Assembly: GCF_900187065.1 (NCBI RefSeq)
Contig: NZ_LT906483.1
Span: forward strand, 310,001 to 374,000
Direction of reading: 5' to 3'
Source: Mycolicibacterium thermoresistibile
Lineage (GTDB): Bacteria; Actinomycetota; Actinomycetes; Mycobacteriales; Mycobacteriaceae
DNA: 64,000 bases
The position numbers and the translations under genes were made by a program. Numbering within the stretch: the stretch's first letter is position 1; each line of letters opens with the position of its first letter. This document shows positions 41,674-44,458 of the stretch, piece after piece. The notes beneath the pieces are model-generated. The model was given only the letters and a program-made list of their open reading frames with translations, searched no databases and was not told the origin of the DNA.

Positions 41674-43058
41674 TGCCCATCGTGCGCGTCGCCGTACTGG
41701 CGGCCGGTGACGACGGCGGGCGTCTCACCGAGATGGCGTTGCCCGCCGAGTTGCCGCTGCGCGAGATCCTGCCCGCGGTCCAACAGATGGCGGCGCCCAC
41801 CGAGGACGGCGCCGACGTCCCCGATGCGGTGCGGCTGAGCCTGGCGCCGATCGGCGGCGCCCCGTTCAGTCTGGACGCAACCTTGCAGACGGTGGGTGTC
41901 GTCGACGGGGATCTGCTGGCGCTGCAGCCGATTCCGAGCGGCCCGCCGGCGCCCCGCATCGTGGAGGACATCGCCGACGCCGCGGTCATCTTCTCCGCCG
42001 CGCGCACCCGGCCGTGGAGCCCGGCCCACATCGCCCGGGCGGCGGCCGTCGCGCTGATCGGCCTGATCCTGGCGGCCTCCGCGCTGTCGGTGGCGCATCG
42101 GATCCTGACCGGAGATGTGCTGGGGTTGTTCGTGGTCAGCGGGGTCGCGGTCGCCACCGTGCTGGCGGCGCTGCTGGCCCGCCCCCGCTCCATCCCGCTC
42201 GCCGCGGCGCTGTCGGTCGCCGCGCTGGTGCCGGTCGGGGCGGCGTTCGCCCTCGCGGTGCCCGGTGATTTCGGCGCGCCGCATCTGCTGCTGGCCGCCG
42301 CCGGTGTGACGGCCTGGTCGATCATCAGCATCACGGTGGCCGAACGGTCGGTGGCGGTGTTCACCACCGCCTCGGTGCTCGGTGTCGCCACGATGGCCGC
42401 CGCGGCCGCCGCCACCCTGTGGGAACCGTCCTGGGTGGTGCTCGGATGCGGTCTGATCGTGCTGGGACTGCTGGTCACCGTGCAGGCCGCGCAGCTGTCC
42501 GCGATGTTCGCCCGGTTCCCGCTGCCGGTCATCCCCGCCCCGGGCGATCCCACCCCGTCGGCGCAGCCCCTGCGGGTGCTGGAGGATCTGCCCCGCCGGG
42601 TGCGGGTCGGTGACTCCCATCAGACCGGTCTGATCGCCGCCGGGGTGCTGCTGTCGGTGGCCGGTTCGGTGGCTCTGGTCGCCCCGCCCGGGGCGTCCGG
42701 CTGGGCCTGGTACGTCGTGGTCGCCGCGGCCGCCGGTTCGACACTGCGGGCCCGGGTGTGGGATGCGGCGTCGTGCAAGCTGTGGCTGCTGTCGCACAGC
42801 TATCTGATCACCGTCGCGCTGCTGATCGGTTTCACCGTCACCGAGCGGTACCCGGCCGCGTGGCTGGCGTTGGCCGTGCTGGCGCTGCTGGTGACGGTGT
42901 GGGCGGTGGTCGTCGCCTACCCGAGGATCGCCTCCCCGGACAGCTATTCGCTGCCGATGCGGCGGCTGACCGGATTCCTGGCCACCGCGCTGGACGCATC
43001 CCTGATCCCGGTGATGGCCTATCTGGTGGGGCTGTTCAGTTGGGTGCTCAATCGGTGA
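41655..43058 (+). CDS. eccD3: ESX-3 polytopic membrane component EccD3
   Basis: The 467-residue protein has an N-terminal ubiquitin-like domain (about residues 8-95, ending GVVDGDLLALQP), then about 11 TM helices from residue 125 to the C-terminus. EccD dimers form most of the membrane vestibule of the type VII pore. The start ATG 41655 lies inside espG3. The stop overlaps the mycP3 start (GTGATGA arrangement), so expression is coupled. Confidence 0.93.
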   Translation: MSDNTVMPIVRVAVLAAGDDGGRLTEMALPAELPLREILPAVQQMAAPTEDGADVPDAVRLSLAPIGGAPFSLDATLQTVGVVDGDLLALQPIPSGPPAPRIVEDIADAAVIFSAARTRPWSPAHIARAAAVALIGLILAASALSVAHRILTGDVLGLFVVSGVAVATVLAALLARPRSIPLAAALSVAALVPVGAAFALAVPGDFGAPHLLLAAAGVTAWSIISITVAERSVAVFTTASVLGVATMAAAAAATLWEPSWVVLGCGLIVLGLLVTVQAAQLSAMFARFPLPVIPAPGDPTPSAQPLRVLEDLPRRVRVGDSHQTGLIAAGVLLSVAGSVALVAPPGASGWAWYVVVAAAAGSTLRARVWDAASCKLWLLSHSYLITVALLIGFTVTERYPAAWLALAVLALLVTVWAVVVAYPRIASPDSYSLPMRRLTGFLATALDASLIPVMAYLVGLFSWVLNR

Positions 43059-44458
43059 TGAGGCCGGGGCGGAATTCGGGCGGCCGGGTGTCGCGGGCCG
43101 GTGCCGCGGCGCTGGCGGTGCTGCTGATCGGCGCACCGAGCGCGGCGGCGATCACCCCGCCGGAGATCGATCCGCAGGAGCCGCCGCCCGCCGGCACCGC
43201 CGGACCCGCCGCGCCGATGGCGCAGCGCGGCGCCTGCGTCGCCACCGCGGTGCTGCCCGGAACCGACCCGGCAGCGGTGAGCCCGAACCTGACCGCGCTG
43301 AACCTGTCCGACGCGTGGCGGTACAGCCGCGGAGAAGGACAGCTCGTCGCGGTCATCGACACCGGGGTCCAACCCGGCCCGCGGCTGCCCGACGTCGAGC
43401 CGGGTGGGGACTACGTGCAGAACGGCGACGGGCTCACCGACTGTGACGGTCACGGCACCGCGGTGGCCGGTCTGATCGCGGGCCAACCCGGGCCGGACGG
43501 GTTCAGCGGCGTCGCGCCGGCCGCCCGGCTGCTCGCCATACGCCAGACCTCGAACCACTTCGCCCCGACCGATGCGGGGGCCGACCCGGTGGTCACCCGG
43601 GCCGGACTGGACGTGCTCAACATGGCCCGCGCGGTGGTGCGGGCAGCCGACCTCGGCGCCCGGGTCATCACCATCTCGACGGCCACCTGTCTGCCCGCCG
43701 ACAACACCGTGGCCCAGTCCCAGCTCGGCGCCGCGTTGCGGTACGCCGCGGTGGAGCGGGACGCGGTGATCGTCGCCGCCGCCGGCGATGTCCGCTCCGG
43801 CGGGCCGACCGGCACGGCCTGCCGGTCCAACCCGTTGGGCGATCTCAGCCGCCCCGACGATCCGCGCGACTGGGCCGGTGTCGGCTCGGTGTCGATCCCG
43901 TCGTGGTGGCAACCGTATGTGCTGTCGGTCGGTTCGCTGAACACCGCCGGACAGCCGTCCGACTTCACGATGTCCGGACCGTGGGTCGGGGTGGCGGCAC
44001 CCGGTGAGGACATCGCCTCGGTGAGCAACGCGCCCGGCGGCGGGCTGGCCAACGCGCTGCCCCGCGGCCAGGACCAGCAGCTCGCCCCGCTGGCCGGAAC
44101 CGGTTATGCCGCGGGCTATGTGGCCGGGGTGGCGGCACTGGTGCGCAGCCGGTATCCGGAGCTCACCGCCGCGCAGGTGGTACACCGCATCACCGCCACC
44201 GCACAGGGCGCCGCCCGCTCCCCGTCCAACCTGATCGGCGCCGGCCGGGTCGATCCGGTCGCGGCGCTCACCTGGGATGTGCCGACCGAACCCGAAACGA
44301 CCGGGCCCGCGGCCAAACCCGTCGCCGCACCGCCGGAGCCCGAAGCGGCCGACAACACACCGAAGATCGTGGCGTTCGCCGGGGTCGGCGTCATCGCGCT
44401 GCTGCTGGTGGTCGCCGCCGCGGTAGCCGCGCACCGACGAAAGGATTCCCAGACATGA
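43058..44458 (+). CDS. mycP3: ESX-3 mycosin MycP3 with substituted catalytic serine
   Basis: The 466-residue membrane-anchored subtilisin-like protein starts at ATG 43058 (GTG 43055 is possible). It has a signal peptide, a catalytic domain and a C-terminal TM helix (about residues 438-458). Asp101 (VIDTGV) and His132 (DGHGTAVAG) of the triad are present, but the serine loop reads AGTGYAAGYVAG with Gly349 (codon GGT at 44102-44104) where the family has GTS. The enzyme should therefore be protease-dead. Mycosins also have a structural role in stabilising the ESX membrane complex, so a scaffold function remains possible. It overlaps eccD3 and eccE3. Confidence 0.93.
   Translation: MRPGRNSGGRVSRAGAAALAVLLIGAPSAAAITPPEIDPQEPPPAGTAGPAAPMAQRGACVATAVLPGTDPAAVSPNLTALNLSDAWRYSRGEGQLVAVIDTGVQPGPRLPDVEPGGDYVQNGDGLTDCDGHGTAVAGLIAGQPGPDGFSGVAPAARLLAIRQTSNHFAPTDAGADPVVTRAGLDVLNMARAVVRAADLGARVITISTATCLPADNTVAQSQLGAALRYAAVERDAVIVAAAGDVRSGGPTGTACRSNPLGDLSRPDDPRDWAGVGSVSIPSWWQPYVLSVGSLNTAGQPSDFTMSGPWVGVAAPGEDIASVSNAPGGGLANALPRGQDQQLAPLAGTGYAAGYVAGVAALVRSRYPELTAAQVVHRITATAQGAARSPSNLIGAGRVDPVAALTWDVPTEPETTGPAAKPVAAPPEPEAADNTPKIVAFAGVGVIALLLVVAAAVAAHRRKDSQT

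What the first reader, a model, noticed from the sequence alone, without database searches (positions are those of the whole stretch)
43058..44458. ESX-3 mycosin MycP3 lacks its catalytic serine (Ser to Gly349)
Asp101 and His132 of the subtilisin-type triad are intact, but the serine loop reads AGTGYAAGYVAG, with codon GGT at 44102-44104, where mycosins have GTS. The gene is otherwise full length (466 residues), in frame and overlapped by eccD3 and eccE3, so decay is unlikely. Mycosins are known to have a structural role in stabilising the ESX membrane complex, separable from proteolysis. A naturally protease-dead mycosin would be direct evolutionary support for that role, and would raise the question of which protease, if any, processes ESX-3 partners here.
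Basis: partly seen in the sequence, partly recalled or inferred. Interest (0 to 1): 0.8.

Follow-up and report, generated by a model that had tools for sequence, protein, structure and literature searches.

The report
Secretion protease that lost its blade
MycP3, a part of the mycobacterial ESX-3 secretion machine that is built like a protein-cutting enzyme, lacks its cutting residue in this genome and in 26 of 122 sampled mycobacterial species that carry it, so it likely serves as a structural part rather than as an enzyme.

Summary
The gene is intact and lies in a complete ESX-3 operon. An 83%-identical protein labelled M. thermoresistibile has both changes too.

It is not a single case. In an even draw of 148 genus genomes, 122 carry MycP3: 26 hold a copy without the serine, 29 a copy with a broken triad. 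Of 230 distinct MycP3 genes, 82 lack the serine (79 Gly, 2 Asp, 1 Ala). Trees need 20-23 changes; one origin is rejected. The 82 frames are open and anchored, dN/dS equals that of serine-bearing genes (medians 0.124, 0.130), and structural cysteines are kept. His or Asp is also lost in 13 of 82. Paralogues mostly keep the serine: MycP1 30 of 30, MycP4 28 of 30, MycP5 27 of 28.

Best reading: MycP3 has repeatedly become a pseudoprotease, kept as a structural cap of ESX-3. No activity was assayed. Why the replacement is nearly always glycine, often with Asn-to-Asp, is open.

The parts
43058..44458 (+). mycP3, ESX-3 mycosin, 466 residues, predicted pseudoprotease
44102..44104 (+). codon 349, Gly at the position of the catalytic Ser
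43787..43789 (+). codon 244, Asp at the position of the oxyanion-hole Asn (that label is recalled)
   Evidence: alignment; the aligned Asn of the genome's own MycP1 is residue 239
43358..43360 (+). codon 101, catalytic Asp, kept
43451..43453 (+). codon 132, catalytic His, kept
43097..43129 (+). N-terminal hydrophobic helix (residues 14-24), signal segment
   Evidence: model, low confidence there; role inferred
44357..44449 (+). C-terminal membrane helix (residues 434-464)
   Evidence: model; hydropathy 2.85 over the best 19 residues
41655..43058 (+). eccD3, upstream neighbour, overlaps mycP3 by one base
   Evidence: TIGR03920, 366 bits
44455..45441 (+). eccE3, downstream neighbour, overlaps mycP3 by four bases
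   Evidence: TIGR03923, 225.2 bits
30676..32556 (+). eccA3
   Evidence: TIGR03922, 841.7 bits
32553..34121 (+). eccB3, the expected contact partner of MycP3
   Evidence: TIGR03919, 560.9 bits; contact inferred from MycP5-EccB5
33992..38125 (+). eccC3 (longest frame; the domain match begins at residue 66, so the true start is probably later)
   Evidence: TIGR03924 and TIGR03925
40468..40761 (+). WXG100 protein, esxH by position
   Evidence: TIGR03930, 51.9 bits
40771..41673 (+). espG3 by position (no NCBIfam match)
   Evidence: name recalled from ESX-3 gene order

Best explanation
The window's MycP3 is a complete subtilisin-fold mycosin with glycine for the catalytic serine and aspartate for the oxyanion asparagine, and it is predicted to be a pseudoprotease that likely acts in ESX-3 as a non-cutting structural cap. 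Shown: the residues, the intact frame and operon, the same loss in many other mycobacteria at many places of the tree, purifying selection on those genes, and the retained fold. Inferred from MycP5: three copies would cap the EccB3 ring, hold the membrane complex together and leave the secretion path, while the dead cleft faces the chamber. Inferred too: no ESX-3 step needs MycP3 proteolysis, so the serine is free to go once the scaffold is needed; after that His and Asp drift. The window genome keeps intact MycP1 and MycP4.
Against: No activity was measured and no MycP3 substrate is known, so loss of function is read from residues. The structural role was shown for MycP1 and MycP5, not MycP3. 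dN/dS was not computed for the window's own lineage, for want of a close nucleotide relative. Pairs of one Ser-bearing and one Ser-less gene have a higher median dN/dS (0.168, 224 pairs), so the change of state may come with other replacements. 'Triad-intact' was defined by the triad, so its invariance in (e) is partly by construction. Plain relaxation does not explain why Gly, out of six residues one base away, is found in 79 of 82, nor the coupling with Asn-to-Asp. The serine is also lost in other mycosins now and then (2 of 30 MycP4, 1 of 28 MycP5), so the trend is not confined to MycP3.
Confidence: 0.8

Rival explanations
1. Loss is adaptive: the protease activity acts as a brake on ESX-3, and losing it raises secretion and thus, say, iron uptake. 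Same pseudoprotease, but driven by selection rather than by relaxation.
For: A protease-dead MycP1 secretes more ESX-1 substrate (PMC5082899, passages). Recurrence, fixation in whole clades (17 Ser-less genes in one clade) and the narrow choice of Gly fit selection.
Against: MycP5 with a dead site did not oversecrete (same paper). No expression or secretion data were available. Most serine-bearing species keep the serine.
Confidence: 0.25
2. The dead cleft is repurposed: Gly plus Asp make a new binding or gating site facing the ESX-3 chamber (a peptide, a substrate tail or a metal).
For: Asn-to-Asp goes with Ser loss: D in 65 of 82 Ser-less genes against 5 of 148 Ser-bearing ones; on independent pairs the same way 7.5, the other way 0.6 of 17 (median p 0.031, range 0.004-0.22), 8.6 against 0.6 of 17, 7.6 against 0.3 of 16. 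Gly is favoured over other reachable residues.
Against: 16 of 82 keep Asn; His, which a metal site would use, is lost in several Asp/Gly genes. MycP5 has Asp there with an intact triad in 23 of 28, so Asp alone is no sign of a new role. The pair test is weak in some pairings.
Confidence: 0.2
3. Redundancy: another mycosin in the same cell has taken over the cutting, so the MycP3 site is free to decay.
For: Paralogues of 30 genomes with a broken MycP3 keep the serine: MycP4 28 of 29, MycP1 11 of 11, others 38 of 40. van Winden et al. favour redundancy for MycP5.
Against: Only 11 of these 30 genomes gave a full-length MycP1; each mycosin is thought to serve its own system. No shared substrate is known.
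Confidence: 0.2
4. Another residue serves as nucleophile and the protein still cuts.
For: Asp101 and His132 are intact in the window, and Thr348 lies next to Gly349.
Against: Residue 348 is Thr or Ser in all 82 and is Thr in 125 of 148 Ser-bearing genes as well, so nothing was gained; the oxyanion residue changed; His or Asp is gone in 13 of 82.
Confidence: 0.04
5. Sequencing error, or a pseudogene on its way out.
For: One codon decides it.
Against: A near-identical cluster representative and an 83%-identical protein share it; frame, overlaps and membrane helix are intact; 82 independent genes show the same state.
Confidence: 0.01

Closest known systems
MycP3 of M. smegmatis (4kg7)
   Same: Fold, operon place, 72-73% identity over the solved part, disulphide cysteines, membrane anchor
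   Different: 4kg7 has Ser and Asn where the window has Gly and Asp
Engineered protease-dead MycP1 and MycP5 of M. marinum (PMC5082899)
   Same: A mycosin without its nucleophile, which there still supports secretion
   Different: Made in the laboratory, in ESX-1 and ESX-5, Ser to Ala; here natural, in ESX-3, Ser to Gly, fixed in whole clades
CspC of Clostridioides difficile (PMC6636752, passages)
   Same: Subtilase pseudoprotease whose pseudotriad is Asp105, Thr170, Gly485; one MycP3 gene (L261) has the same Asp-Thr-Gly set
   Different: CspC is a spore germination regulator with an uncleaved prodomain; no relation to secretion machines
MycP5 in the ESX-5 membrane complex (7np7, PMC8131196)
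   Same: The structural role proposed here: capping and stabilising the EccB ring; Asp at the oxyanion position in most copies
   Different: Serine kept in 27 of 28 sampled copies

Membership tests
Mycosin (TIGR03921) | Score above the curated cut-off | tested here: met
   389.6 bits against 278.75
Mycosin (TIGR03921) | C-terminal membrane anchor | tested here: met
   helix 434-464, hydropathy
MycP3 of ESX-3 | Between eccD3 and eccE3 in an ESX-3 operon, closest to known MycP3 | tested here: met
   4kg7 best in sequence and fold
Active subtilase (S8 peptidase) | Nucleophilic Ser in the GTS loop | tested here: not met
   Gly349
Active subtilase (S8 peptidase) | Catalytic Asp and His | tested here: met
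   Asp101, His132
Active subtilase (S8 peptidase) | Oxyanion-hole Asn | tested here: not met
   Asp244; but MycP5 also has Asp there in 23 of 28 copies, and its activity is unknown
Pseudoprotease | Protease fold with a lost catalytic residue | tested here: met
Pseudoprotease | Kept by purifying selection | tested here: met
   for Ser-less MycP3 genes as a group; the window's own lineage was not measurable
Pseudoprotease | No proteolytic activity | not testable with these tools
   needs an assay
Structural cap of an ESX membrane complex | Binds EccB and is needed for complex stability | not testable with these tools
   known for MycP5 (PMC8131196) and MycP1/MycP5 (PMC5082899), passages only

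The most novel reading that the evidence does not exclude
MycP3 is a hot spot of pseudoprotease birth: mycobacteria have turned the ESX-3 mycosin off some twenty times, always first by Ser to Gly and often with Asn to Asp, because the emptied cleft is selected as a new gate or binding site of the ESX-3 chamber.
Probability: 0.2. Interest if true: 0.85.

Novelty: new variant of a known kind. Interest (0 to 1): 0.72.

Why it matters
Whether mycosins matter as proteases or as structural parts has been asked with engineered mutants of MycP1 and MycP5. Here the experiment has been run by evolution, in the ESX-3 paralogue, many times over and in species that live with the result. It says that MycP3 proteolysis is dispensable in a fifth of the sampled MycP3-bearing species, warns against active-site inhibitors of MycP3 as drugs for those species, and warns annotators, who name all of these genes serine proteases. 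Matched natural pairs (M. kyorinense E861 without, DSM 45166 with the serine) make the question testable without any construct. The window's organism is apt for it: its MycP1 matches the crystallised MycP1 4hvl at 370 of 371 aligned residues.

Tried and rejected
Structure with a shallow alignment of MycP3 alone (A1, 50 rows) failed: pLDDT 52.0, discarded; with paralogues added (A2, 98 rows) it reached 90.4. Column reading of residue 244 in the first alignment was unreliable because of a variable loop next to it, so the residue after the AAAG-like motif was read instead (unreadable in 5 of 230). A close nucleotide relative for dN/dS of the window's lineage was sought and not found. A hope that M. 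intracellulare transposon data would show a need for a dead MycP3 came to nothing: the paper reports a fitness cost for mycP3 in hypoxic pellicles (PMC7096427, passages), but I did not establish the residue in that species; PMC12726824 (passages) deals with mycP5. A metal site was considered and set aside, since His is lost in several Asp/Gly genes. Three of the 71 genomes that matched the Gly pattern (G020, G295, G368) matched outside MycP3.

Rows dropped before counts: of 232 distinct mycosin frames, the two paralogues L002 and L003, leaving 230; 16 of 230 had no usable eccD3 and are absent from the 214-row tree. In the MycP5 count two of 30 places were left out, L467 (a front piece of the L454 gene) and L468 (a fragment), leaving 28; D and H could not be read in one of these. 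MycP1 and MycP4 counts are the best 30 places, a cap of the tool, of 37 and of more.

Full report
What is there. The window holds an ESX-3 operon: EccA, EccB, EccC, a WXG100 protein, EccD, mycosin and EccE are matched by NCBIfam models. mycP3 at 43058-44458 encodes 466 residues. It overlaps eccD3 and eccE3. Asp101 and His132 stand; the nucleophile position 349 is Gly. A second change sits at residue 244, Asp for the Asn of the solved MycP3. That Asn is the oxyanion-hole residue of subtilases (recalled); in the genome's own MycP1 it is residue 239, and in the M. thermoresistibile MycP1 a bulky replacement at residue 239 blocked cleavage in vitro (PMC5082899, passages). That MycP1 matches the crystal structure 4hvl at 370 of 371 aligned residues, which with my recollection that 4hvl is from M. 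thermoresistibile suggests the window is from that species; but a protein labelled M. thermoresistibile is only 83% identical to the window's MycP3, so the name is uncertain.

How common is it? Of 148 genomes drawn evenly from the genus I found and fetched a MycP3 (over 50% identity) in 122; 26 have at least one copy without Ser, 29 at least one copy with a broken triad, 24 no intact copy. A DNA pattern for Gly at the site matched 71 of 396 genomes, three of them outside MycP3, against 6 of 396 for the pattern read backwards. Of 80 named loci, 8 lack the Ser: M. hippocampi, M. kyorinense E861, an isolate labelled M. vanbaalenii, M. pinniadriaticum, M. vulneris DSM 45247 and three less well named. 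Proteins named M. colombiense, M. heraklionense, M. minnesotensis, M. kumamotonensis, M. zoologicum and Ca. M. methanotrophicum have it too. M. kyorinense is split: DSM 45166 (L063) has Ser.

What replaces it? Among 230 distinct genes: 148 Ser, 79 Gly, 2 Asp, 1 Ala. The triad breaks further: His is Arg, Gln, Asn, Thr or Ser and Asp is Gly in some; 13 of 82 Ser-less genes against 3 of 148 Ser-bearing ones (Fisher p 0.00015, not corrected for kinship). The three Ser-bearing exceptions have lost His and are presumably dead too. The serine codons in use reach six residues by one base change; only Gly is seen as a first step, Asp and Ala lying inside Gly clades. Were Gly an even chance each time, 21 of 21 would have odds of 5e-7; GC-biased change would soften this, so I hold it as a sign of constraint or selection, not as proof.

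How often did it happen? On an eccD3+eccE3 tree (214 rows) the state changes 21 times; rooted on the M. abscessus-like group (that name is recalled) the root is Ser and 23 losses are needed if regain is barred. A mycP3 tree without the active-site columns gives 20, an 81-row subset 23. A single clade of Ser-less genes is rejected, p-AU 1.2e-8; the log-likelihood gap (4445) is so large that the held tree was probably not well searched, so I lean on the change counts.

Is the protein still needed? All 82 frames end at a stop inside the fetched stretch (416-479 residues; the shortest, L236, lies at a contig end), 82 of 82 have the C-terminal hydrophobic segment and 81 of 82 have both neighbours. 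Median dN/dS over the protease domain is 0.124 (308 pairs without Ser), 0.130 (664 pairs with Ser) and 0.168 (224 mixed pairs). Of 64 columns invariant in the 145 triad-intact genes 48 are kept in all 82 and 60 in at least 95%; the rest are Gly94 and the triad. Cys 60, 129, 211, 255 and Trp 272, 284, 309 are kept in both groups without exception.

Is it special to MycP3? Largely. In 30 genomes with a broken MycP3, paralogues keep the Ser in 28 of 29 MycP4, 11 of 11 MycP1 and 38 of 40 others; these genomes were chosen for their MycP3, so this shows only that the rest of the family is not decaying. In even draws of the genus the Ser is kept in 30 of 30 MycP1, 28 of 30 MycP4 and 27 of 28 MycP5. 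The two MycP4 exceptions have Asn, so other residues do occur in the family.

The Asp at 244. Ser-less genes have Asp in 65, Asn in 16, Glu in 1 of 82; Ser-bearing ones Asn in 137, Asp in 5, Thr in 1, unread in 5 of 148. Pairs on separate branches agree, median p 0.016-0.031, with single pairings up to 0.22. Both orders occur, since Gly with Asn and Ser with Asp exist.

Mechanism. Published work shows that MycP1 and MycP5 are needed whole but not as proteases (PMC5082899, passages; PMC5156307, first part read) and that MycP5 caps the EccB5 chamber with its cleft facing in (PMC8131196, passages). The simplest reading is that MycP3 does the same in ESX-3 and that its proteolysis is dispensable. 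This part is inference. Subtilase pseudoproteases are known; CspC has the pseudotriad Asp, Thr, Gly (PMC6636752, passages), the very set of MycP3 gene L261.

Novelty. Searches of open-licence PMC papers for naturally inactive mycosins listed none; 'mycosin' with 'pseudoprotease' gave 0 papers. Subscription papers, among them the MycP crystal structures and the M. tuberculosis MycP1 study, were not available, so an earlier remark cannot be excluded. I rate it a new variant of a known kind: recurrent natural pseudoproteases within the mycosins.

Noticed in passing
L286, L396, L397 (genomes G124, G021, G020): The ESX-4 mycosin MycP4 has Asn in place of the catalytic Ser in three genomes: a second natural nucleophile loss in another ESX system.
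   Followed up: partly
L439-L466: MycP5 has Asp at the oxyanion-Asn position in 24 of 28 sampled copies, 23 of them with an intact triad, so MycP5 itself may be a weak protease.
   Followed up: partly
L456 (G043), L359 (G101), L350 (G072): Single MycP5-like copies with Gly, Gly and Ala at the Ser position.
   Followed up: no
G022, G069, G073, G130, G174, G371 and six others: Twelve genomes carry two MycP3-like genes; in these six both copies lack the Ser. A few second copies (L241, L242, L281) form a distant group that may be plasmid-borne.
   Followed up: partly
L194, L218, L220: MycP3 genes with Ser kept but catalytic His replaced.
   Followed up: no
P0003 against window 43058-44458: A protein labelled M. 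thermoresistibile is only 83% identical to the window's MycP3, although the window genome's MycP1 matches crystal structure 4hvl almost completely; the species name seems to cover two species or one label is wrong.
   Followed up: no
L026 and L063: Two strains named M. kyorinense differ: E861 lacks the Ser, DSM 45166 has it.
   Followed up: no
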